54,397 nucleotides of DNA, from assembly GCA_001801685.1 (NCBI GenBank), contig MGYJ01000070.1, forward strand, positions 1 through 54,397. Direction: 5' to 3'. This document shows positions 19,195 to 30,956 of this stretch, piece by piece (the stretch's first letter is position 1; the number at the start of each line of letters is the position of its first letter). This DNA is from Gammaproteobacteria bacterium RIFCSPHIGHO2_12_FULL_63_22 (GTDB taxonomy: Bacteria > Pseudomonadota > Gammaproteobacteria > Xanthomonadales > Xanthomonadaceae). Below the pieces are notes generated by a model, which was not told where the DNA came from, did no database searches, and worked only from the letters and a program-made list of their open reading frames with translations. Made by a program: the position numbers and the translations under genes.

Positions 19195-19794
19195 TCAGGG
19201 CTTGAGCGTGAAGCTGGTGCTCGCGGTGCCGCCGGTAATGGTGACCGTCTGCGCCTTGCCGGAGATCTTGCTGCAGGTGACCTGGAAGGTGGTCATGCCG
19301 CCCGTCTTCGAATTCCAGGCGAGGTCCACCGACGCGGGGACTTTGCAGGCGGAATGGGACGAAGACAGTGGGATGGTCTCGGTGCCGGAGGTCTCTGGCG
19401 CGTCATCGGACCCCACCACCACTGACACGGTGATCGGCTGCGAGTTGTTGGAGTTCATCCAGCTGTTCTGGGCCGACAGGCTGATGGCCAGGGGAGCCGC
19501 CGTCATCACGATGGCGTCGGTGCCGGTACCCGTGCCGGTATTGCCGATGGATTCGGTACCGGTGCCGGTACCCGTGTTGCCTACGGAGTCGGTTACCGTC
19601 CCGGTGCCGGTATTGCCCACCGAGTCTGTGCCGGTGCCGGTGCCGGTATTGCCGACCTCGTCGGTGGGCGTGGGCTCTTCCGGCGCAGGTGCGGGCGCCG
19701 GTGCAGGGGCAGGCGCGGGTGCTTCTTGTGCCTGCACTTGCAGGGGGATGGCCCCGAGCAGGGCGAGAGCGATGATTATCGGTGTGGCTTTCAT
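19195..19794 (-). CDS. Secreted protein with four 12-residue GNTGTGTGTDS repeats
   Basis: 199 aa. Signal peptide MKATPIIIALALLGAIPLQVQAQ (cut near 23), then an alternating Ala-Pro stretch (24-41) that could span a wall or periplasm, then four tandem 12-residue units (47-94) of the type VGNTGTGTGTDS. A C-terminal domain (about 97-199) resembles a beta-sandwich with two cysteines (HSACKVP, VTCSK) that could pair. Function unknown. The ATG at 19794 follows TAGGAGCCCAAG. The repeat tract is nearly perfect at DNA level and could change length by slippage. Confidence 0.7.
   Translation of the reverse strand: MKATPIIIALALLGAIPLQVQAQEAPAPAPAPAPAPAPEEPTPTDEVGNTGTGTGTDSVGNTGTGTVTDSVGNTGTGTGTESIGNTGTGTGTDAIVMTAAPLAISLSAQNSWMNSNNSQPITVSVVVGSDDAPETSGTETIPLSSSHSACKVPASVDLAWNSKTGGMTTFQVTCSKISGKAQTVTITGGTASTSFTLKP
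19513..19656 (-). repeat. Four tandem 36-bp units inside the secreted-protein gene
   Basis: Units of 36 bases encode VGNTGTGTGTDS, VGNTGTGTVTDS, VGNTGTGTGTES and IGNTGTGTGTDA without spacers. Since the unit is a multiple of three, gain or loss of units keeps frame. They are coding repeats, not a CRISPR array. Confidence 0.85.
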
Positions 19795-19983
19795 CTTGGG
19801 CTCCTAAGCGGCATTGCTTCCAGCCAGGAAACGGGCAGCGCATGGCGACCCGGGCGGCAAATATTGGCACAAGCCGGGAACTGCCGCTTGACATGCCCGG
19901 AGAACCATACGGATGAAGGCTTCCGGGGCAGGCTGGTACACTCGGCGCTGCAGGCTCGGCATCAACGCCGTGGGGAGCATGCG

Positions 19984-22512
19984 ATGCAGGACGTTCCGGG
20001 ATACGAGTTCATTCGAGAGCTCGGGCGCGGAGGAATGGCGGTTGTCTACCTGGCGACGCAGAAGTCGCTGAAGCGGCCCGTGGCGCTGAAGCTGCTCGAC
20101 CGAAACGTGCCGGGCTATTCCGAACTTGCGCAACGTTTCATCAACGAAGCCCACACCCTGGCCGGCTTGCGGCATCGCAACATCGTGACCGTCTATGACG
20201 TGGTGGAGTCGTCGCAGGGCGATTTCATCAGCATGGAATACCTCGAGGACGGCAGCCTGGCCGATCGCCTGGCGGTCGGCCTGAGCGTGCAGCAAAGCCT
20301 GTCCATCCTGGCGCAGTTGGGTTCCGCGCTGGACGCCGCGCATGCGCGGGGCATCGTCCATCGCGACATCAAGCCCGACAACGTGCTGTTCCGCGATGCC
20401 GATACGCCGGTGCTCACCGACTTCGGCATCGCGCGGCTGATCGATCCCGAATCGCAGCGCATGACGCAAGCGGGACTCGCGGTCGGAACACCGAGTTACA
20501 TGTCGCCGGAACAGATTTCCGGCGATCCCATCGACGGCCGCGCCGACCAGTACAGCCTGGGGGCAATGTGGTTCCAGATGCTGACCGGCCACCTGCCCTA
20601 CACGGCAGACAACACGTCCGATCTTCTGGTCGCCCATCTGGCGCGACCGATTCCCAGCTTGCCGGCGGCGCTAGCCGCGCTGCAGCCGGTGATCGACCGC
20701 ATGCTGGCCAAGCAACCGGCGGCGCGTTACTCGAACATGGCGGCGATGCTGGTGGACGTGGGTCGCCACCTGCTGCGCGCGCCGGAATTGTTGCGCGCGC
20801 CGCCCGGCACCGCCCAGGTAAGTCCGACCGAACGATTGCACCAGTTGGGCTTCCCCACGACCGGCGTGCAACACACGCTGACCACCAGCCAGACCCGATT
20901 GCTCGATACACCGCGCGAGTTGTCCCAGCCTGCCCTGCCCGTCATGAAGGGAAAGCGCTTTCGCATCGTCGTGATGTCGGTGGTCGTCGTTGCCCTTGCG
21001 CTCGCTGTGGGCGGCTTGCTGTATCGCGATCGCGATCGCGGCGCGACGGCGGCCGACAACGCTGCGGTGTCGACAGCTTCGTCCGCGACGACGGATGCGC
21101 CCTCGGCCGAAGCGACTTCGGCGCGATCCATTGCCGTGCTCCCGTTCGCCGACCTCAGCCAGGAAAAAGACCAGGCCTACATGTCCGACGGCCTGGCCGA
21201 AGAACTGTTGAACCTGCTGACGAAAGTCCCGCGCCTGCGCGTGATTGCGCGCACGTCCTCGTTTTCGTTCCAGGACAAGTCGGTGGATGTGGCTACCATT
21301 GCCAAGGCCCTGGACGTGGACCACGTATTGCAAGGCTCGGTGCGTCGTTCCGGCAAGCGCATCCGCATCAGCGCGCAGTTGATCCGCGCGCAGGACAGCG
21401 CGCAGGTGTGGTCGGAAACCTACGACCGCGACGACAACGACGTGTTCGCCGTGCAGGATGAAATCGCCGCCGCGGTGGTCGGGCAGCTGAAGATAAAGCT
21501 GATGGGCGAACCGCCGCACACGCAGAAGACCGATCCCCAGGCATACGCCTTGTTCCTGAAAGCGCGCCAGGCCGGACGCCGCGGTGATGCGCAGGGCCTC
21601 GAACAGGCAGTGACTCTCTATCGCCAGGCCATCGACATCGATCCCGCCTACGCGCCCGCGTGGGTGGGCCTGTCGTCGAACTATGCCAACCAGGCCAACA
21701 GTGGCTTGCGGCCGATGGATGAAGGCTTCCGCCTGGCGCGCGAAGCCGTGGACAAGGCGCTGGAAATCGATCCCGAATTCGCCCGCGCACATGCGCAGAT
21801 GGGCTATATCGCGATGAGCCACATCGGCGACCTGCAATTGGCCGCCGTGCACCTGCAGCGCGCACTGGTGCTGGCGCCGGACGATACCGGCGTCATCCTC
21901 AACGCCGCGCGGCTGGCGCAGGCCCTGGCCCGCGTGGACCAGGCGACGTCGTTCGACCAACTGGTGATCGCGCGCGACCCGGTGAATGCCCGCGCGCACT
22001 ACAACCTGGGCGTGGACTACCTGTATTCGAATCGCGTGGACGAAGCGATTGCCAGCTGGCAAACGACCATCGCGCTCAGCCCCGGCTTCATCGGCGCCTG
22101 GTACAACATCGGCACCGCGCAACTCGCGCGCGGCCAGAGCGAGTTGGCGCTGGCGTCCTTCCAGAAGGAACCGTCGGAAGTCTGGCGCCTGATCGGCCTG
22201 CCCATGGCCTACCACGCGCTCGGCAAGAAGGCCGAATCCGACGCGGCCCTATCCAGGCTGATCGCGGAACACGCCACCGATTCGGCCTACAACATTGCCT
22301 ACGTGCAGGCCTTCCGCGGCGAGCACGACCAGGCCTTCCAGTGGCTTGAACGAGCCATCGCCTACAAGGACACCGGTTTGTCGGATGTCGCGTTCGAGCC
22401 TGCCTTCGACGGCATGCGCAAGGATCCGCGTTGGGCGCAAATGCTGCGCAAGCTTGGCAAGTCGCCGGAACAACTGGCGGCGGTGAAGTTCGACGTGAAG
22501 CTTCCCGAATAG
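19984..22512 (+). CDS. Transmembrane Ser/Thr protein kinase with TolB-like and TPR domains
   Basis: 842 aa. The N-terminal Hanks-type kinase (about 7-262) has the G-loop ELGRGGMAVVY (12-22), VALK with Lys36, HRDIKPDNVL (126-135), DFGIARL (146-152) and GTPSYMSPEQ (168-177), so it should be active. One transmembrane helix (about 327-347) follows a cytoplasmic linker. The external part starts with a TolB/FlgO-like domain (SIAVLPFADLSQEKDQAYMS, about 381-500) and goes on with tetratricopeptide repeats (about 510-800). The layout suits signalling across the inner membrane with protein binding outside. The ATG at 19984 follows GTGGGGAGC. Its substrate is unknown; it is a single gene convergent with yedK. 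Confidence 0.88.
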   Translation: MQDVPGYEFIRELGRGGMAVVYLATQKSLKRPVALKLLDRNVPGYSELAQRFINEAHTLAGLRHRNIVTVYDVVESSQGDFISMEYLEDGSLADRLAVGLSVQQSLSILAQLGSALDAAHARGIVHRDIKPDNVLFRDADTPVLTDFGIARLIDPESQRMTQAGLAVGTPSYMSPEQISGDPIDGRADQYSLGAMWFQMLTGHLPYTADNTSDLLVAHLARPIPSLPAALAALQPVIDRMLAKQPAARYSNMAAMLVDVGRHLLRAPELLRAPPGTAQVSPTERLHQLGFPTTGVQHTLTTSQTRLLDTPRELSQPALPVMKGKRFRIVVMSVVVVALALAVGGLLYRDRDRGATAADNAAVSTASSATTDAPSAEATSARSIAVLPFADLSQEKDQAYMSDGLAEELLNLLTKVPRLRVIARTSSFSFQDKSVDVATIAKALDVDHVLQGSVRRSGKRIRISAQLIRAQDSAQVWSETYDRDDNDVFAVQDEIAAAVVGQLKIKLMGEPPHTQKTDPQAYALFLKARQAGRRGDAQGLEQAVTLYRQAIDIDPAYAPAWVGLSSNYANQANSGLRPMDEGFRLAREAVDKALEIDPEFARAHAQMGYIAMSHIGDLQLAAVHLQRALVLAPDDTGVILNAARLAQALARVDQATSFDQLVIARDPVNARAHYNLGVDYLYSNRVDEAIASWQTTIALSPGFIGAWYNIGTAQLARGQSELALASFQKEPSEVWRLIGLPMAYHALGKKAESDAALSRLIAEHATDSAYNIAYVQAFRGEHDQAFQWLERAIAYKDTGLSDVAFEPAFDGMRKDPRWAQMLRKLGKSPEQLAAVKFDVKLPE

Positions 22513-24007: not shown

Positions 24008-24766
24008 TCAGCGCTCCTGGGCATGCACGTAAATCGCCAGGCCGTCGACCACCAGCGCGGGCAGGTGCATCACTGGCGCGTATTCCACATCCGCCAGCAG
24101 CGTTGCGCCACCACCACCCACCAGCAGCGTCGGAATCGTGCCCAGCCGTTCGCGTGCCTTGCGCAGGCTGCGCTCCACCAGGCCCAGCGCGGCGCCGCGA
24201 CAACCTGAGGCGATGGCATCGGCGGTGTCTGCCGCAAAATCCGTGGCCTGGCCTTCGGCCAGGTCGAGTTGCTTGAAGCCGGCGGCCAGCGCGGCGCGCA
24301 TGCGCGCGGGCATCGGCGCGATCGACCCGCCCAGGTGCCGTCCATCTTCGGCAAGCAGGTCGATGGTCAGCGCGCTGCCCGCCGACACCAGCAACCACGG
24401 GCCATCGTCGCGTTCGCTGGCGGCAACCATGGCAAGGAATCGATCCACGCCCAGGTTCGCAGGCTCCGCATAGGCGATGCGCAGCTTGCCGAATTCCGAT
24501 TGGGTCTGGACGCGATGCACGCGAAGCCCGTGTTGTTCAAGCGCGGCAACCAGCACCGCCGTCCGCTCTGTCGATGCCACCGATGCGAGCCATAGCTCGT
24601 CGCTGCTTCCGGCCACGCCAAAATGTTGCATCAGCATCGGCAAGGCGTTGGGCTGGTCGTGGCCGATGGCAAGGATCTCGCCGCGCCGGCCCTGTGCGTC
24701 GAGCAGGGCGCATTTCAGGCGGGAATTGCCCAGGTCGATCAGCCAGCGTTTGCGAACGGTCTTCAT
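24008..24766 (-). CDS. coaX: Type III pantothenate kinase
   Basis: Phosphorylates pantothenate, the first committed step of CoA synthesis, with K+ or NH4+ dependence and no CoA feedback in this type. The 252-aa protein has the ASKHA fold markers: LIDLGNSRLKCALLD (phosphate 1), NLGVDRFLAMVAA, VSAGSALTIDLL (phosphate 2 region) and LLVGGGGATLL (adenosine). G-V-D-R is the usual pantothenate-binding signature. Its ATG overlaps the birA stop (ATGA). Pairing with birA is common in proteobacteria. Confidence 0.93.
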   Translation of the reverse strand: MKTVRKRWLIDLGNSRLKCALLDAQGRRGEILAIGHDQPNALPMLMQHFGVAGSSDELWLASVASTERTAVLVAALEQHGLRVHRVQTQSEFGKLRIAYAEPANLGVDRFLAMVAASERDDGPWLLVSAGSALTIDLLAEDGRHLGGSIAPMPARMRAALAAGFKQLDLAEGQATDFAADTADAIASGCRGAALGLVERSLRKARERLGTIPTLLVGGGGATLLADVEYAPVMHLPALVVDGLAIYVHAQER

Positions 24767-25584
24767 GCCGGTCGAAGGCTGACTTCGCCCCCGTGAAAAC
24801 TGCGTTCATGCCCGTCTTCGCCGCGCAGGCGCAGGGCGCCGTCGGCGTTTATGCCAAGACTCATCCCCTCGAACTGCTGCACCCCGTCCGTTACCCGCAC
24901 CGCCGCGCCGCGCAGCGCATCCAATGCGTGCCAGCGCGGCAGGAAGGGCGCGAGGCCTTCATCGTCGAAACATTGCAGCGCTGGCAGCAGCGCGCCAAGC
25001 AGGCGCGCCGCAACTTCGTTTCGCGATACATCGCCAGCGCCCAGCTGCGACAGGTCGCACCAGGCCTGGTCGATGCGGCGCGCAGCGTCATCGGGCATGC
25101 GCACGTTCAATCCCATGCCGATGATGGCGCTGCAACCGGGCGGATCATTGCGCAACTGCACCAGGATGCCACCGAGCTTGCGCGCGTCCACCCACAGGTC
25201 GTTCGGCCATTTCAGTCGCACGCCGCCGAAGCCCATGGCGTGCAGGGCCTCGGCCGCGGCCACGCCGACCACCAGGCTCAGCCCGGACATCGTAGCCAGC
25301 GATCGCGAGAATCGGCGCGACACGCTGAAGTAAAGATTGGCCGATGCCGGCGATGCCCACGGCCGACCATTGCGCCCGACCCCGCCGCTTTGATACTCGG
25401 CGAAGAAAACGGCGCAGCCCTGCGCAGGCGCGCCCGCCGATGCCGCATCGATCTGCGTGGAAACCGTTTCGCGGGCAATGGACAACGACGACAATTGCGA
25501 CAACGCGTCGCCGCCCAGCGAACTGCGGACGAACGCCGCATCGAGCAACTCGACATCATTGCGTTCAAGCGCGCGCGGCTTCAT
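24763..25584 (-). CDS. birA: Biotin--[acetyl-CoA-carboxylase] ligase lacking a full DNA-binding domain
   Basis: Activates biotin to biotinyl-AMP and transfers it to the carboxyl carrier protein. The 273-aa protein has AEYQSGGVGRNGRPWASP (ligase loop), LKWPNDLWV and KLGGILVQL, and a C-terminal SH3-like domain (VRVTDGVQQFEGMSLGINADGALRL). Two departures from E. coli BirA: the winged-helix repressor domain is missing (only about 35 residues precede the catalytic core), so it is probably not a repressor; and the nucleotide loop reads GVGRNGR where E. coli has GRGRRGR, keeping the arginine equivalent to R118. Its start overlaps the plsY stop and its stop overlaps the coaX start. Confidence 0.88.
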   Translation of the reverse strand: MKPRALERNDVELLDAAFVRSSLGGDALSQLSSLSIARETVSTQIDAASAGAPAQGCAVFFAEYQSGGVGRNGRPWASPASANLYFSVSRRFSRSLATMSGLSLVVGVAAAEALHAMGFGGVRLKWPNDLWVDARKLGGILVQLRNDPPGCSAIIGMGLNVRMPDDAARRIDQAWCDLSQLGAGDVSRNEVAARLLGALLPALQCFDDEGLAPFLPRWHALDALRGAAVRVTDGVQQFEGMSLGINADGALRLRGEDGHERSFHGGEVSLRPA

Positions 25585-26213
25585 GCGCTTTTCTTCGACA
25601 GCCAGCGGCCCAGCACGCGCACGCGCTCGAAGCGCGATTCGGTGCCGGCGCGCAGGCGGGCGATATTGCTGCGATGGGTGAACACCAGCAGCGCGGCGGC
25701 GGCCACGCAGAAGCCAAGGCGGATGGCGTCGCTGCCTTCAACCAGCGCCACCAACACCAGGCTGACGCCGGCGAGCATGGTGGCGAGGCCGACATAGCCA
25801 CCCCAGGCCAGACTGACCACCCACACCAGGAATACGGGCAACAGGACCTGCGGCCAGACGACTGCCAGGCCGCCGACCAGCGTGGCCGCGCCCTTGCCAC
25901 CGCGGAAGCCATGGAAGATCGGCCAGACGTGCCCCGCGACCGCGGCGAGTACGCAGCCATACAACCAGGCCGGCGACAGCCCGGCCGGCAGGAATCGCCA
26001 TGCCAGCCAGGTGGCAAGCGCGCCTTTGCCGATATCCACCAGCACGGTGCCGAGTGCGAATTTCAGGCCCTGCGTGCGCAGGGCATTGGTGCCGCCGGCA
26101 TTGCCGCTGCCAATGGTGCGGATATCAATACCGCGTAGTTTTCCCAACAGCAGGCTGCCCGATATCGAACCGAGCAGGTAAGCGGCCAACAACAGCGCGA
26201 GGGCAATCCACAT
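25581..26213 (-). CDS. plsY: Acyl-phosphate:glycerol-3-phosphate acyltransferase
   Basis: Integral membrane enzyme that makes lysophosphatidic acid from acyl-phosphate and glycerol-3-phosphate. 210 aa with about five to seven membrane segments. The three PlsY motifs are visible: LLGSISGSLLLGKLRGIDIRTIGSGNAGGTNALR, KGALATWLA with GHVWPIFHGFRGGKGAATLVG, and a later FTHRSNIARL. The ATG at 26213 lies 7 bases past the stop of the fatty acid kinase fusion, whose product (acyl-phosphate) is its substrate. Overlap with birA by 4 bases indicates one transcript. No plsX is in the window. Confidence 0.95.
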   Translation of the reverse strand: MWIALALLLAAYLLGSISGSLLLGKLRGIDIRTIGSGNAGGTNALRTQGLKFALGTVLVDIGKGALATWLAWRFLPAGLSPAWLYGCVLAAVAGHVWPIFHGFRGGKGAATLVGGLAVVWPQVLLPVFLVWVVSLAWGGYVGLATMLAGVSLVLVALVEGSDAIRLGFCVAAAALLVFTHRSNIARLRAGTESRFERVRVLGRWLSKKSA

Positions 26214-26220
26214 GCGCCGA

Positions 26221-28041
26221 TTATGGCGCGATTACCGGCTGCAAGCTGATGACGAGCGCGCCCGGCCCGGCGTGTGCGCCCACCGCAGGACCCGTCTCGG
26301 CCAGCCAGGCGTCCTGGCAGTCGATCGAGGATTTCAGCCGCGACAGCAGCAGTTCGCCGTCGGCCGGCGCGTCGCAATGGCCGACGATCACGCGATAGCG
26401 CTGGCCCGCTTGCACGCGACGGGCGACGTAACGGGCGAATCGTTCCGGAACATTCTTCTTGCCCATCAACGCGCCAACCAGGCTGAGCTTGCCGATAGGC
26501 GTCACCTTGGCGATCGGCGTCAGGCCCAGGCCCTGCACCAGCGGCTTGCCCCACGCGGGAATGCGGCCACCACGCACGGCCAGCGTCAGGTCGCGGGTCA
26601 CCGCCCAGGTCAGCGTTTGCGAGCGCAGGCGTTCGACCAGCGCCACGATGCTGGCCGCGTCGTCGCCACGCTGCGCGGCTTCCGCTGCGGCGATCGTCAG
26701 CAGGGCCAGGCCACCGGCGGCGTTGGCGCTGTCGAAGATGAAGGTTCGATCGGGATGGCCGCGCTGAGCCGCCGTTTCTGCCGACTGGATCGTGCCGGAC
26801 ACGGCGCGCGCCACGCCGAGGTAAACCAGGGACGGATGATGCGACAACAGGAATTCGAACTGCCGGCGGAAATCGCCGGGCGAGGGTTGGCTGGTGCGCG
26901 GCAAGACGATTTCTTCGCGCAGCTTCCGGTAGAACTCGGCCGGCGTCAGGCCGATCTTGTCCAGGTAATCCTGGTCGCCGAAGTTCAGGCGCAGCGGCAC
27001 GACATGGATATTCAGTTGCTCGGCGATGCCCTCGGGCAAGTCGGCCGAACTGTCGGTGATGATGGCGACGCTGCTGCCGCCGGCTGCGGTGCGCGCCTGC
27101 GCGCGCATGTCGTCGGCCTTGGTCGATTCCACTCGGCCGAAGCGCGCGGCGATGTCGAACAAAGCCTGGGGATCGGCCACGTGCGCATGCAGGCGGATGC
27201 GCGAGTGCGAGCCCGCGACGACCACGCAGGACGCGCCGAGGTCGCTGACAGCCGCGCGCAAGCCGGCGCGGTCCAGCCCTTCGCCCAGCAACAGGCATTC
27301 GCTGCACCAGCGATGCGCGGGATCGGCATCGATGACCTCCTGATGCGCTTGCGCGGCTTCCAGGTCGGCCTCGGATTCGGTTTCCAGCGTCTCGGCATCG
27401 ATCTGGCCGTTGCTGAGGTAGTCGCCGATGCCTTCCAGCAAATCCACGAAACCCTGCGCGCCGGCATCAACCACGCCAGCACTTTTCAACACCGGCAACT
27501 GTTGCGGGGTATAGGCAAGCGCTCGACGTGCTTTTTCGAGTGCGGGCGCAAACCAGCCACGCAGGTCGTCGACCCGTCGGTCCGGGTCGAAGGAGTCGGC
27601 AAAGGCGCTGATGACGCTGAGGATGGTGCCCTCGCGCGGCTCGGCCAGCGCCTGCCGCGCGGACAGGGAACCGGCGCGGATGGCGCGCGCCATGATGCCG
27701 GGCTCGATGGCGGCGCGGTTGCCGATGCTCTCGGCCACGCCGGTGAAGAACTGGGCCAGGATGGCGCCAGAATTTCCGCGCGCGCCGTCGATGGCGTCTT
27801 CCCCTACCCGGCGCATCAACTCGCCGGCGCCGGCGGTGCGTCGGCTCAGTGCGCCGGTCAGCACACTACCCAGGGTGAAGGCGAGATTGCTGCCGGTATC
27901 GCCGTCCGGCACCGGGAACACATTGATCTTGTTGAGGACATCGCGGTCGGCGATGACCCGGCGGGCGCCCGCGATCAGGGCCCTCCGAAGGGCGGGGCCG
28001 CGGATGCGGAGTCTCGGTGCTTGCAGGGCAATGGCATTCAT
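26221..28041 (-). CDS. FakA-FakB-like fatty acid kinase fusion (DhaL/DAK2 - middle - DegV)
   Basis: 606 aa. N-terminal DhaL/DAK2 nucleotide domain (about 12-208) with the Mg-binding NVFPVPDGDTGSN (41-52) and GARGNSGAILAQF. A FakA-type middle domain (about 240-315: HRWCSECLLL, then a G-S-H-S-R-I-R-L-H stretch). A complete DegV/FakB-like lipid-binding domain (about 323-606: VAIITDSSADLP, LPRTSQPSPGDF, GVARAVSGTIQSA). In Firmicutes FakA (kinase) and FakB (fatty acid carrier) are separate and together make acyl-phosphate. Here one chain appears to hold both. It is the first gene before plsY, which uses acyl-phosphate. The ATG at 28041 is the only good start. Confidence 0.85.
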   Translation of the reverse strand: MNAIALQAPRLRIRGPALRRALIAGARRVIADRDVLNKINVFPVPDGDTGSNLAFTLGSVLTGALSRRTAGAGELMRRVGEDAIDGARGNSGAILAQFFTGVAESIGNRAAIEPGIMARAIRAGSLSARQALAEPREGTILSVISAFADSFDPDRRVDDLRGWFAPALEKARRALAYTPQQLPVLKSAGVVDAGAQGFVDLLEGIGDYLSNGQIDAETLETESEADLEAAQAHQEVIDADPAHRWCSECLLLGEGLDRAGLRAAVSDLGASCVVVAGSHSRIRLHAHVADPQALFDIAARFGRVESTKADDMRAQARTAAGGSSVAIITDSSADLPEGIAEQLNIHVVPLRLNFGDQDYLDKIGLTPAEFYRKLREEIVLPRTSQPSPGDFRRQFEFLLSHHPSLVYLGVARAVSGTIQSAETAAQRGHPDRTFIFDSANAAGGLALLTIAAAEAAQRGDDAASIVALVERLRSQTLTWAVTRDLTLAVRGGRIPAWGKPLVQGLGLTPIAKVTPIGKLSLVGALMGKKNVPERFARYVARRVQAGQRYRVIVGHCDAPADGELLLSRLKSSIDCQDAWLAETGPAVGAHAGPGALVISLQPVIAP

Positions 28042-28193
28042 CGTCGCGAAGTCTGCCGCATGCCGCGTGAAGCGCCATGCTGCGCTGCATCATGGCGCTG
28101 CGGAAGTCGCAGGTTCCAGCTACACTTGGCCAATGCAACTATTTGCCCATTCGGCGCATCTGACCTTGCATGACCCGCCATGAGACCGCCGAA

Positions 28194-28427
28194 ATGTCCC
28201 GTTTGCTGCTGGCCCTGAGTCTGTTCGCCTTTGCCGCGATTGCGTTGGCCAACGAGCCCACTGCAACCGACGACACGCCCTCGGCCAAGCCGGGCAAACC
28301 GGCTGCGACCGCCAGCAGCGAATCCGAAGCACCGGCGGCACCGGCTGCGCCCGCGCCTGCACGCAGCAGCACCACGCGCCCCGCGCTTCCGCGCTGGCAC
28401 AGCCTGCTTCCGGGAATGATCCGCTAG
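28194..28427 (+). CDS. Small secreted hypothetical protein
   Basis: 77 aa. Signal peptide MSRLLLALSLFAFAAIALA (cut near 19), then an Ala/Pro/Ser-rich low-complexity linker, and a distinct end TTRPALPRWHSLLPGMIR. A short Trp/Pro/Gly-rich C-terminal motif after a disordered linker suggests a surface or membrane contact. An ATG at 28170 would add 8 residues without a better ribosome site. It converges on phoQ with one base between the stops. Function unknown. Confidence 0.55.
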   Translation: MSRLLLALSLFAFAAIALANEPTATDDTPSAKPGKPAATASSESEAPAAPAAPAPARSSTTRPALPRWHSLLPGMIR

Positions 28428-28428
28428 T

Positions 28429-29898
28429 TCAGAACAGTGGCGGGAAATGCACGGTGAAGCGTGCGCCACCCAGTTCAGTCGAACGCTCGACCTTCAACTC
28501 GCCACGATAGGCGCGAACGATGTCCTGCACGATCGCCAGGCCGATGCCATGGCCGTGTACGCGTTCGTCGCCACGCACGCCGCGTTGCAGCAGGTGGTCC
28601 ACATTTTCGGCCGGAATGCCCGGGCCATCGTCTTCAATCGCGAAGAACACACCCGGCCGGCGATTGCCGTTGGCCGGCTCGACCTTCACGGTCAGCAACA
28701 CGCGTTGCTTGGCCCACTTGAAGGCGTTCTCGAGCAGGTTGCCCAGCAGTTCCTGCAAGTCGCCGATCTCGCCATAGAAGCTGGCGTCGGCATCCACTTC
28801 GAATTCGCAGAACACGCCCTTGCCGATATAGACCTTTTCCAGGCTGGCGACGATTTCCTCGGCGCGCGGCTCGATGCTGATCGGCGCGGAGAACAAGGCA
28901 TGGCCGCTGCGCGCCGCGCGCGACAACTGGTAGGACACGATTTCATTCATGCGCTGGATCTGCGCGGCCACTTCACTACGAAGCTCGGCTTCGTCCGCGC
29001 CGGAATCCAGGCGCGAACGCATCACGGCCAACGGCGTCTTCAAGCTATGCGCCAGGTCGGCCAGCGTATTGCGGCTCTGGTCGAGGTGCGTGTATTCGCT
29101 TTCGATCAGGCCGTTGATGCTGTCGGTGATCTGCTGCAGTTCCGGCGGATGCCGTCCCGACAATCGGTCGGCGACGCCGCGGCGCACGCGGGACAATTCA
29201 CTTTCCAGCACGCGAAGGGGTTGCAGGCTCCAACGAAGCACCAGCATCTGCACCAGCAACAGCAACACCGCGGCCATGCCCAGGTAGCCCCACAAGGACG
29301 CGCGGAACACGCCGACCTGGCGGTCAAGTTGTTCGGCGTCTTCGTAGATGGCGATGGTGAAGCGGGTGATGGTGCCTTCCTGCCCGGTCTCGCCCTGTTC
29401 CCAGGCAACGCCCGTGCTGAAGCGGTAGTACTTGTGCGCGATGCCCTTGTCGTCGACAAAGCCTTCAAGCTCCGGCTCGAAGCGTTGCTCGCCCGCCTTC
29501 AACAGTTCCGGCTCGGGCAGGTTGCGGCCGAGTACCGAGGGCGAATTCCAGTGCAGGGTCTTGCCGCGCACCACCGCATACAGGCCGCTGCCCGGCTGGC
29601 GGAAACGCGCATCCGGCGCCTGCCCTTCGGGCGGCTCGATCAACTGGCTGTCGCGGGTGAATTCGAACGCGCCCAGATAGGCATACGCGTCGTTCTGCAG
29701 GCGTTCCTGCAGGTTGCTGATGGCCGTGCGCTGGAAGGCCTGGTCCAGGGCAATACCGGTCAGCCCCAGAAAGGCAACAAGGCCAAGGCTCGCCGCAAGC
29801 AGCTGGCGGGCATGCAGTGAAAGTGCACGCCTCGCCACTCGCGGGGCCTTCGCGACCTTATTCGCTACGCGGGATAGCGAACCGATAACCGCGGCCAC
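28429..29898 (-). CDS. phoQ: PhoQ-like sensor histidine kinase
   Basis: 489 aa. Two membrane helices (about 31-50 and 200-222) flank a periplasmic sensor region. Then a HAMP-like linker, H-box LADLAHSLKTPLAVM (His about 284), N-box LLGNLLENAFKWAK, G1 EDDGPGIP and G2 HGHGIGLAIVQDI. The periplasmic domain is rich in acidic residues, as in Mg/peptide-sensing PhoQ. The first possible start is a GTG at 29898, overlapping the phoP stop by about 40 bases; a start closer to LSLHARQLLAASLG is also possible. It pairs with the adjacent PhoP. Confidence 0.88.
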   Translation of the reverse strand: MAAVIGSLSRVANKVAKAPRVARRALSLHARQLLAASLGLVAFLGLTGIALDQAFQRTAISNLQERLQNDAYAYLGAFEFTRDSQLIEPPEGQAPDARFRQPGSGLYAVVRGKTLHWNSPSVLGRNLPEPELLKAGEQRFEPELEGFVDDKGIAHKYYRFSTGVAWEQGETGQEGTITRFTIAIYEDAEQLDRQVGVFRASLWGYLGMAAVLLLLVQMLVLRWSLQPLRVLESELSRVRRGVADRLSGRHPPELQQITDSINGLIESEYTHLDQSRNTLADLAHSLKTPLAVMRSRLDSGADEAELRSEVAAQIQRMNEIVSYQLSRAARSGHALFSAPISIEPRAEEIVASLEKVYIGKGVFCEFEVDADASFYGEIGDLQELLGNLLENAFKWAKQRVLLTVKVEPANGNRRPGVFFAIEDDGPGIPAENVDHLLQRGVRGDERVHGHGIGLAIVQDIVRAYRGELKVERSTELGGARFTVHFPPLF

Positions 29899-30538
29899 GG
29901 ACCGTCTCGATCGGCTTCAATTCGCCTTCCGGATCGAGCTTCTTGCGCAGGCGGCCGATGAAGACCTCCAGCACATTGGAATCACGATCGAAATCCTGCT
30001 GGTAAATGTGCTCGGTCAGGTCGGCCTTGGACACCAGCTCGCCGGCATGCAGCATCAGGTACTCGAGCACCTTGTATTCGTAGCTGGTCAAATCCACGCC
30101 GGCGCCATTGACGCTGACCGTCTGCGCGGAGAGGTCGAGGCTGACCGGACCGCAATCGAGCGCCGGCTTGCTCCAGCCTGCGGCGCGACGCAGCAAGGCA
30201 TTGATGCGGGCAAGCAGTTCTTCCACATGGAAGGGCTTGACCAGGTAATCGTCGGCGCCGGCCTTCAGGCCTTCCACCTTGTCCTGCCAGCTCGAACGCG
30301 CGGTCAGGATCAGGATCGGGAATTTCTTGCCTTCCGAACGCAGGTTGCGAACCAGGTCCATGCCCGACATCTTGGGCAGGCCAAGGTCGATCACGGCGAC
30401 GTCGAACGGAAGTTCGCGACCGTGGTACAGGCCTTCTTCGCCATCGGCTGCGGCATCAACGGCAAACCCTTCCCGCTTGAGGCGGGCGGTTAGCGTTTCC
30501 CGGAGCGGGGCTTCGTCTTCGACCAGCAAAATACGCAT
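29858..30538 (-). CDS. phoP: PhoP-like response regulator (OmpR family)
   Basis: 226 aa. Receiver domain (1-120) with acidic pocket EDE, phosphoacceptor Asp in AVIDLGLPKMSG (about 51), Thr in LTARSSW and Lys in VKPFH. An OmpR-type winged helix follows (about 130-222: LTSYEYKVLEYLM, SNVLEVFIGRLRKKL, IETVRGRGYRF). The ATG at 30538 starts the family MRILLVEDE. The stop lies inside the 5' end of phoQ, so the pair is co-translated. The PepSY-like gene lies 40 bases upstream on the same strand and is probably in the same operon. Confidence 0.93.
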   Translation of the reverse strand: MRILLVEDEAPLRETLTARLKREGFAVDAAADGEEGLYHGRELPFDVAVIDLGLPKMSGMDLVRNLRSEGKKFPILILTARSSWQDKVEGLKAGADDYLVKPFHVEELLARINALLRRAAGWSKPALDCGPVSLDLSAQTVSVNGAGVDLTSYEYKVLEYLMLHAGELVSKADLTEHIYQQDFDRDSNVLEVFIGRLRKKLDPEGELKPIETVRGRGYRFAIPRSE

Positions 30539-30578
30539 GTCGTCTCCTCGGGTGGATCCGGCTGCGAGCCAGATCCGA

Positions 30579-30956
30579 TTACTGTGGCGGGTCTTCGTCC
30601 GAATCGCTGGACGATTGTTTTTGCTTGTCCCTGCCTTTGGCAGGGCGATCCCTGGTCGGTGGATTGCTGGGGTCGTCCTGCACGACGCGCACACGGCCGT
30701 CTGCAGTCAGGACCTTCAGGCGATACACCTCGCGCCCGTCACGTTGCATAGGTTCGGCCCGAAGGACCTCACCGCCAGTCTGCCGTTCCACCCGCCGGAC
30801 GGAGTCCGGCAGGGAGCCACGGTTACCCTTCGCCGGCGCCTGGGCAGGGCCCTGGGACGGCGGGTCGGTTGGCGGGGATTGCGCCCAAACGCTGCCCGTT
30901 CCGACCAGAATGGCCGCAACAAACAGGGTTTTGACACTTCGAGAGAAGCTAAACAT
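30579..30956 (-). CDS. Secreted PepSY-like protein upstream of phoPQ
   Basis: 125 aa. Signal peptide MFSFSRSVKTLFVAAILVGTGSVWAQ (cut near 26), then a Pro/Gln-rich stretch. A short PepSY-type unit follows (about 50-98: SLPDSVRRVERQTGGEVLRAEPMQ, REVYRLKVLTADGRVRVVQDD), and then a charged tail. PepSY proteins bind or inhibit proteases in the periplasm and often accompany PhoPQ-type systems. A role in modulating PhoQ is an inference. The ATG at 30956 begins the signal peptide. Confidence 0.7.
   Translation of the reverse strand: MFSFSRSVKTLFVAAILVGTGSVWAQSPPTDPPSQGPAQAPAKGNRGSLPDSVRRVERQTGGEVLRAEPMQRDGREVYRLKVLTADGRVRVVQDDPSNPPTRDRPAKGRDKQKQSSSDSDEDPPQ

What the first reader, a model, noticed from the sequence alone, without database searches (positions are those of the whole stretch)
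25581..28041. Fatty acid kinase fusion (FakA+FakB-like) co-encoded with PlsY
A single 606-aa chain carries a DhaL/DAK2 kinase domain (PVPDGDTGSN), a FakA-type middle domain and a complete DegV/FakB-like fatty-acid-binding domain. The next gene, 7 bases on, is plsY, whose substrate is acyl-phosphate, the product of the Fak reaction. In Firmicutes the two Fak parts are separate and not tied to plsY. The arrangement suggests a one-protein route from exogenous fatty acid to lysophosphatidic acid that skips acyl-CoA and acyl-ACP. birA and coaX (biotin for acetyl-CoA carboxylase, CoA) follow in the same run, so the operon as a whole is lipid-supply oriented.
Basis: partly seen in the sequence, partly recalled or inferred. 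Interest (0 to 1): 0.72.

Follow-up and report, generated by a model that had tools for sequence, protein, structure and literature searches.

The report
One-chain fatty acid kinase with PlsY
A bacterium related to Lysobacter seems to activate free fatty acids with one fused enzyme, instead of the usual two proteins, and to pass the product to the next gene's enzyme for making membrane lipids, although it has lost the usual supplier of that product.

Summary
One intact 606-aa ORF (26221-28041, minus strand) joins a FakA kinase domain, a FakA middle domain and a complete FakB/DegV domain; plsY follows after 7 bases, then birA and coaX. All FakA catalytic residues tested are present, and most FakB ones. 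The FakA C-terminal docking domain is missing, and FakB's docking arginine (Arg205) is methionine here and non-arginine in 75 of 83 distinct fused domains.

In 61 genomes of the order, fusion and PlsY occur together in 48 and are both missing in 10. The fused enzyme is the only recognisable acyl-phosphate source for PlsY here.

The fusion is not unique: it recurs in many phyla, some Firmicutes included, and lies beside plsY in Neomarinimicrobiota, Calditrichota and Bipolaricaulota too.

Against: independent joint losses are few; 14 of 369 class genomes have PlsY with neither PlsX nor a Fak match; most fusion holders elsewhere keep PlsX; activity is untested. I found no description of the fusion in the papers searched.

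The parts
26221..28041 (-). fused single-chain fatty acid kinase ('FakAB'), 606 aa
   Evidence: ORF and translation; Pfam and NCBIfam domains; AlphaFold model pLDDT 89.1, pTM 0.86
27427..27915 (-). DhaL/Dak2 (FakA_N) kinase domain, residues 43-205; N40 (just outside the Pfam limits), D46 D48 T49 N90 D192 correspond to S. aureus FakA N32 D38 D40 T41 N82 D185
   Evidence: Pfam PF02734; PDB alignment; residue roles from PMC9136124; invariant in 81 of 81 fused kinases
27091..27312 (-). FakA_L/middle domain, residues 244-317, with C246, H285, H287 (S. aureus C240, H282, H284)
   Evidence: Pfam PF21645; invariant in 81 of 81 fused kinases; roles from PMC9136124
26239..27069 (-). complete DegV/FakB domain, residues 325-601, in the place of FakA_C; T383, S415, H590, R493 kept; docking Arg205 is M526
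   Evidence: Pfam PF02645; alignments; column counts; fold match
25581..26213 (-). plsY, acyl-phosphate:glycerol-3-phosphate acyltransferase, 210 aa; by my own count S36, R46, K107, H180, N183 match aaPlsY S35, R45, K104, H177, N180
   Evidence: PF02660 and TIGR00023; aaPlsY residues from PMC5700162 passages
24763..25584 (-). birA, biotin protein ligase; best family match begins at position 61 of 319, so apparently without the N-terminal repressor part
   Evidence: PF03099, PF02237; TIGR00121, NF008848
24008..24766 (-). coaX, type III pantothenate kinase
   Evidence: PF03309; TIGR00671
23354..24007 (-). SPOR-domain protein, last gene of the run
   Evidence: PF05036; abuts coaX

Best explanation
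The gene encodes a single-chain fatty acid kinase. Its C-terminal FakB domain takes a free fatty acid from the membrane, the N-terminal DhaL domain holds ATP-Mg2, and the middle domain supplies the Cys-His-His set and, by analogy, dimerisation. The fatty acid is phosphorylated in cis, or within the dimer. The covalent tether replaces the docking between FakA_C and FakB Arg205 that brings the two proteins together in S. aureus. Acyl-phosphate is then used by PlsY, encoded by the next gene, to form lysophosphatidic acid. The lineage has lost PlsX, so this kinase is the only recognisable acyl-phosphate source; PlsB serves the de novo route. Shown by sequence: the fusion, catalytic residues, missing FakA_C, replaced Arg205, gene layout, no PlsX match and an empty plsX slot. 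Inferred: activity, cis catalysis, hand-over to PlsY, co-transcription, and whether the fatty acids are exogenous or recycled.
For: Domains and residues. Model and folds. S. aureus FakA_N+L without FakA_C is active but its Km for FakB1 rises from 0.09 to 0.99 uM (PMC9136124), so a tethered FakB could do without FakA_C. PlsX is absent in 37 of 37 genomes of the family, this one included; the own cluster reads yceD-rpmF-fabH-fabD-fabG-acpP-fabF without plsX, against E. coli K-12 with plsX. PlsB present in 59 of 61. Fusion and PlsY: both in 48, neither in 10, fusion only 1, PlsY only 2, of 61. Adjacent in 45 of 48. The own genome has one DegV, one Dak2 and one PlsY match. Purified B. subtilis FakA/B plus PlsY make lysophosphatidic acid in vitro without PlsX (PMC13400652 passages).
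Against: No activity data. FakB1 Arg205 and Ser171 are not conserved here (M526, G491). In the class sample 18 of 369 genomes have PlsY and no PlsX, and 14 of those have no Fak match; 6 of the 14 are under 90% complete and in 6 a sampled congener has PlsX, but G171 and G288, of one genus, both lack it. PlsYs of G171, G288, G338 and G041, all without the fusion, lie in the same PlsY clade as the window's, so this PlsY type may have another acyl donor; acyl-ACP use is reported for S. pneumoniae PlsY and suggested for E. coli PlsY (PMC1950310 passages). One fusion holder, Woeseiaceae MAG L062/G433, shows neither PlsX nor PlsY. Most fusion holders elsewhere keep PlsX: 10 of 13 full-length holders of the class sample and 22 of 33 genomes behind L056-L088. 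Joint losses are few: 2 pairs on well-supported branches, 5 on the best tree, sign test not significant; the genes are neighbours, so one deletion can remove both.
Confidence: 0.74

Rival explanations
1. The fused kinase recycles the cell's own free fatty acids (from lipid turnover or thioesterases) and is not an uptake route; PlsY uses the product. The chemistry is the same, the physiology is not.
For: S. aureus FakB1 activates fatty acids from phospholipid turnover (PMC8892158 passages). E. faecalis Fak recycles fatty acids (PMC12594616 passages). The five genes of the run are a kinase, plsY, birA, coaX and a SPOR gene, with no transporter or lipase among them.
Against: Nothing here separates the two sources; uptake genes in this genome were not searched.
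Confidence: 0.4
2. PlsY of this lineage works on acyl-ACP or acyl-CoA and does not need the kinase; the two genes are linked by descent and operon structure, and the fused kinase feeds something else.
For: Four genomes with the same PlsY type show neither PlsX nor the fusion; S. pneumoniae PlsY is reported to use acyl-ACP too (PMC1950310 passages). One fusion holder shows no PlsY (L062/G433). In two other gammaproteobacteria looked at (L060, L213) the fusion sits by type II secretion gene gspB, without plsY.
Against: Adjacency recurs in three other phyla; in family f12, where the two genes are on different contigs in the holder G047, the other sampled genome G056 lacks both. Two of the four exceptions have a sampled congener with PlsX (G041 with G051; G338 with G230).
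Confidence: 0.15
3. The chain binds and phosphorylates another hydrophobic carboxylic acid (branched, hydroxy or ring-modified), as a dedicated salvage enzyme.
For: Fused chains in Enterococcus, Vagococcus and one gammaproteobacterium (G088) sit beside DUF1295 membrane-protein genes of unknown function, in three loci also DUF2177; Xanthomonadaceae make much iso-branched fatty acid (recalled, no call).
Against: Carboxylate-binding residues are mostly those of ordinary FakB; no modifying gene is among the five genes of the run.
Confidence: 0.1

Closest known systems
FakA (YloV/VfrB), fatty acid kinase catalytic subunit of Firmicutes (PDB 7w7h, 7rm7, 8vip)
   Same: DhaL domain with the ATP/Mg residues and middle domain with Cys-His-His; 34% identity and target TM 0.92 for the N domain of 8vip
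   Different: FakA_C (the FakB-docking domain) is absent and a FakB-type domain sits there; below the YloV and FakA_VfrB cut-offs (250.9 against 396.1; 157.6 against 975 bits); 26 of 27 canonical rows form one supported clade without it in a quick kinase tree
FakB1/FakB2, DegV-family fatty acid binding proteins
   Same: Full-length DegV fold, Arg173 and Thr62/Ser95/His270 equivalents, target TM 0.83-0.90 among the listed matches
   Different: Covalently joined to its kinase; docking Arg205 replaced by Met, and non-Arg in 75 of 83 fused domains against R in 9 of 11 stand-alone ones; Ser171 is Gly491
PlsX-PlsY acyl-phosphate pathway
   Same: PlsY with acyl-phosphate as the presumed donor
   Different: No PlsX match in this genome nor in the other 36 sampled genomes of the family
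PlsY-DegV fusions of Chloroflexi (Bellilinea, Thermanaerothrix), noted in PMC5700162
   Same: Physical linking of a FakB-type domain with the route to PlsY
   Different: There the DegV domain is fused to PlsY; here it is fused to the kinase and PlsY is the next gene (passage read)

Membership tests
FakA-type fatty acid kinase | DhaL domain with the two-Mg/ATP residues (Asn32, Asp38, Asp40, Thr41, Asn82, Asp185) | tested here: met
   N40 D46 D48 T49 N90 D192; invariant in 81 of 81 fused and in 47 or 48 of 48 canonical kinases; roles from PMC9136124
FakA-type fatty acid kinase | Middle domain with Cys240, His282, His284 | tested here: met
   C246 H285 H287, 81 of 81 fused
FakA-type fatty acid kinase | C-terminal FakA_C domain that docks FakB | tested here: not met
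   YloV and FakA models match only to positions 302 of 530 and 313 of 549; the DegV match starts at residue 325, 7 residues after the end of the middle-domain match at 317
FakA-type fatty acid kinase | ATP-dependent acyl-phosphate formation | not testable with these tools
   needs an enzyme assay
FakB fatty acid binding subunit | Full DegV domain with the three FakB-only segments that roof the fatty acid tunnel | tested here: met
   Alignment to FakB1 runs through residues 27-62, 164-185 and 264-273 with only a one-residue gap in the first (segments from PMC9136124); target TM 0.83-0.90
FakB fatty acid binding subunit | Carboxylate network Thr62, Ser95, Ser171, His270 | tested here: inconclusive
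   T383, S415, H590 kept; Ser171 is G491 (G in 70 of 83 fused and in 8 of 12 stand-alone domains)
FakB fatty acid binding subunit | Catalytic Arg173 | tested here: met
   R493; R in 83 of 83 fused
FakB fatty acid binding subunit | Arg205, FakA docking and membrane encounter | tested here: not met
   M526; R in 8 of 83 fused, 9 of 11 stand-alone after leaving out one broken fused copy, L145
PlsY | PlsY family model and active-site residues | tested here: met
   TIGR00023 over cut-off; S36 R46 K107 H180 N183 by my count against residues in PMC5700162; Ser142 not placed
PlsX-PlsY pathway | PlsX present | tested here: not met
   No PF02504 match in the own genome, 8 of 14 control genomes ring; no plsX between rpmF and fabH

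The most novel reading that the evidence does not exclude
An ancient second class of fatty acid kinase in which FakB is a permanent domain of the kinase. Docking has been replaced by tethering and Arg205 turned mostly hydrophobic, so the chain may stay at the membrane and hand acyl-phosphate straight to PlsY. In the Lysobacter family, with PlsX lost, acyl-phosphate would report free fatty acids and no longer acyl-ACP. If acyl-phosphate also restrains LpxC, as proposed for E. coli (PMC13060810 passages), these bacteria would tune LPS synthesis to free fatty acid.
Probability: 0.25. Interest if true: 0.8.

Novelty: new variant of a known kind. Interest (0 to 1): 0.62.

Why it matters
[quoted passage not shown] Here a Gram-negative lineage appears to depend on a one-chain Fak for acyl-phosphate. 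Why gammaproteobacteria that have PlsB keep the PlsX/PlsY route is still discussed (PMC13060810 passages). A lineage with PlsY but no PlsX, in which PlsY mostly comes and goes with a kinase, offers a natural experiment on it. A single chain could also ease study of the assembled Fak active site, which PMC9136124 (2022) said had not been seen; a S. suis FakA-FakB2 complex (7w7h) was released later that year.

Tried and rejected
Chance or mis-joined ORF: rejected, because the chain is intact and conserved across families and phyla. FakA_C mistaken for FakB: rejected, because the C-terminal domain is a full DegV match with the tunnel segments. A hidden second Fak in the genome: one Dak2 and one DegV match only. 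PlsX missed by a draft gap: rejected for its usual place; the family search covered the whole assembly, but sequence missing from the assembly cannot be excluded. Transfer of a kinase-plsY cassette between phyla: the PlsY tree is unresolved at its base, left open. Statistical proof of co-loss: too few independent events. The first PlsB tree used wrong reading frames for many rows and was thrown away; one search replaces it. A paper remembered as noting DegV-DhaL fusions (Kinch and others 2005, recalled) is not held, so a prior mention of the fusion cannot be excluded. Neighbours of fusions away from plsY were scanned with Pfam, a few genes each, in eight loci only (L060, L080, L081, L082, L086, L213, L219, L220); apart from DUF1295/DUF2177 in one subgroup and a glycerophosphate-oxidase-like gene in L220 they gave no shared lipid context.
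Full report
What is there. The minus-strand ORF 26221-28041 encodes 606 aa. Pfam places Dak2 at 43-205, FakA-like_M at 244-317 and DegV at 325-601. NCBIfam shows the first 302 of 530 positions of YloV and the whole DegV domain; of the kinase and binding-protein models only the DegV domain model passes its cut-off, not YloV, FakA_VfrB or FakB1, so these models alone would not name it a fatty acid kinase. plsY starts 7 bases downstream; birA, coaX and a SPOR-domain gene follow with 4-base overlaps or none. Upstream lies a divergent small ORF without Pfam match and a histidine kinase gene.

Residues. Against S. aureus FakA (PDB 7rm7 and 8vip, aligned; roles read in sections of PMC9136124) N40, D46, D48, T49, N90 and D192 are the Mg/ATP residues, and C246, H285 and H287 the Cys-His-His set. 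All nine are invariant in 81 of 81 fused kinases aligned. Against S. aureus FakB1 (PDB 6nyu, numbered by my count; roles from passages of PMC8892158) T383, S415, H590 and R493 match Thr62, Ser95, His270 and Arg173. Two FakB features are not met: Ser171 is G491, and Arg205, which that paper calls completely conserved and the key residue for binding FakA, is M526.

A signature of tethering. In 83 distinct fused DegV domains (the window's own included) the Arg205 column holds R in 8 and F 43, L 12, V 4, W 4, I 3, M 3, T 3, P 2, A 1 in the other 75; in stand-alone DegV domains R is found in 9 of 12, or 9 of 11 after leaving out L145, which is part of a broken fused gene. Fisher p is about 1e-6, but rows are related and this is not a phylogenetic test. 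Among 29 fused rows from named genomes R is in 2; among 27 rows of the wider order and class it is in 5. Catalytic Arg173 is kept in 83 of 83. FakA_C, the partner of Arg205 in S. aureus, is missing from the window's chain. S. aureus FakA_N+L without FakA_C is active with an about 11-fold higher Km for FakB1 (PMC9136124). So tether for docking is a consistent reading; it is an inference.

Structure. AlphaFold2 with 32 fused sequences (A2) gives mean pLDDT 89.1 and pTM 0.86; the parts under 50 are residues 1-10 and 219-236, the latter the linker between kinase and middle domain. Foldseek's best hit is the S. suis FakA-FakB2 complex; among the 50 matches listed the C-terminal half matches DegV/FakB structures at target TM 0.83-0.90 and the N-terminal half S. 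aureus FakA_N at 0.91-0.92.

PlsX is gone. PF02504 finds no PlsX in this genome, nor in any of the other 36 sampled genomes of its family; 9 of 61 genomes of the order sample have it. The E. coli control rings. The own fab cluster reads yceD, rpmF, fabH, fabD, fabG, acpP, fabF, with 140 bases between rpmF and fabH; E. coli K-12 has plsX there. Only this one genome's slot was inspected. PlsB is present in 59 of 61. The four records L056-L059 (Lysobacter, Pseudoxanthomonas, Lysobacterales) also lack PlsX.

Co-occurrence. In the 61 genomes the fusion matches in 49 and PlsY in 50: both in 48, fusion only in G024 (a fragment of 152 residues), PlsY only in G041 and G053, neither in 10. G053 has PlsX; in G041 none is found, but its congener G051, with a very similar PlsB, has it. 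Some fusion matches are partial, split or carry internal stops (G003, G011, G015, G024). In 45 of the 48 the genes are adjacent with at most 175 bases between matches; G045 and G047 have them on different contigs, and in G060 they lie near the ends of two contigs. Six of the 49 fusion holders also have PlsX. On a PlsB tree of 40 rows the fusion changes state 5 times and PlsY 6 times; only 2 independent pairs rest on well-supported branches, none going the opposite way, which cannot reach significance. Since the genes are neighbours, one deletion can remove both; the pair G047/G056 in family f12, where the genes are unlinked in G047 and both missing in G056, is the one case that escapes this.

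Class-wide check. Of 369 class genomes 22 match the fusion query: 13 full-length chains, 3 cut at contig ends, 1 with separate FakA and DegV (G128), and 5 weak single-domain matches. PlsX matches in 332 and PlsY in 327. Comparing these lists I count 18 genomes with PlsY but no PlsX; 4 have a Fak match (G000, G047, G065, G128) and 14 have none. Of the 14, 6 are under 90% complete and 6 have a sampled congener with PlsX (G203, G212, G297, G338, G377, G399), but G171 and G288, of one genus, both lack it. Of the 13 full-length holders 10 have PlsX. Behind the named loci L056-L088, 22 of 33 genomes have PlsX, and of 14 of them tested for PlsY 13 have it; L062 (Woeseiaceae MAG) has neither PlsX nor PlsY. 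So 'PlsY needs PlsX or Fak' is a strong tendency in the window's order and not a rule of the class, and the fusion does not replace PlsX everywhere. The PlsY tree puts PlsYs of the order's fusion holders and of some other gammaproteobacterial holders in one clade (support 89/96, not starred) apart from ordinary gammaproteobacterial PlsY (97/92), but that clade also holds the no-fusion genomes G041, G171, G288 and G338; seven other fusion holders have the ordinary type.

The fused ones come from Gammaproteobacteria, Neomarinimicrobiota, Calditrichota, Aminicenantota, Bipolaricaulota, Spirochaetota, Bacillota and others. plsY is directly downstream in 9 of 33: three Lysobacterales, four Neomarinimicrobiota, one Calditrichota, one Bipolaricaulota. 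In the order the run fusion-plsY-birA is seen in families f1, f3, f4, f5, f7, f9 and f11, with coaX following in f1, f4, f5 and f9 (the stretches of f3 are too short to show coaX). A quick kinase tree of 83 rows (56 fused; 27 of 48 canonical kept) puts 26 canonical rows in one starred clade; the odd one, L097, is a very long branch. The root is unknown, so whether fusion or separation came first is open.

Literature. Nine searches of the held papers showed no description of a FakA-FakB fusion; I read abstracts, passages or sections, no whole paper. PMC5700162 (passages) reports PlsY-DegV fusions in two Chloroflexi and proposes hand-over of acyl-phosphate from FakB to PlsY. PMC13060810 (passages) proposes acyl-phosphate as an LpxC inhibitor in E. 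coli. PMC1950310 (passages) discusses PlsY using acyl-ACP, which is the main rival.

Verdict. An authentic, widespread but apparently undescribed variant of a known system, with a strong functional context in a lineage without PlsX. Activity, cis catalysis and channelling remain to be tested.

Noticed in passing
L080, L081, L082, L086, L220: A subgroup of fused kinases in Vagococcus, Enterococcus, Salisediminibacterium and one gammaproteobacterium (G088) sits beside a DUF1295 gene; DUF2177 is seen as well in L081, L082 and L220 (not looked for exhaustively in L080 and L086). In L220 a glycerol-3-phosphate oxidase-type gene precedes the fusion.
   Followed up: partly
L221 (G128): A gammaproteobacterium without a PlsX match has a canonical-type FakA followed directly by a DegV gene; its kinase groups with canonical FakA in the kinase tree.
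   Followed up: partly
L247, L252, L250, L275: PlsYs of genomes with neither PlsX nor a fused kinase found (G171, G288, G338, G041) fall in the fusion-associated PlsY clade; their acyl donor is unexplained.
   Followed up: partly
L062 (G433): Woeseiaceae MAG with the fused kinase but no PlsX and no PlsY match; completeness unknown.
   Followed up: no
window 28429-30694: A histidine kinase gene (Pfam HATPase_c) and an overlapping ORF that reads like a response regulator (not scanned) lie upstream of the operon on the same strand.
   Followed up: no
window 28170-28427, plus strand: Small ORF (85 aa) with a signal-peptide-like start and a Pro/Ala-rich rest, divergent from the fused gene; no Pfam match.
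   Followed up: no
window 24763-25584: BirA apparently without the N-terminal repressor part: the best family match starts at position 61 of 319.
   Followed up: no
G003:C1:1140102-1141904 and G011:C266:2443-4252 (L145): Fused-gene copies in two genomes of the same genus with internal stops or a split frame; possibly draft errors.
   Followed up: no
window 19726-22512, plus strand: Long ORF that reads like a serine/threonine kinase followed by a TPR-type region; judged from the translation only.
   Followed up: no
L060 and L213: In these two gammaproteobacteria the fused gene directly follows a type II secretion gspB gene, itself preceded by a gspA-like ATPase gene.
   Followed up: partly
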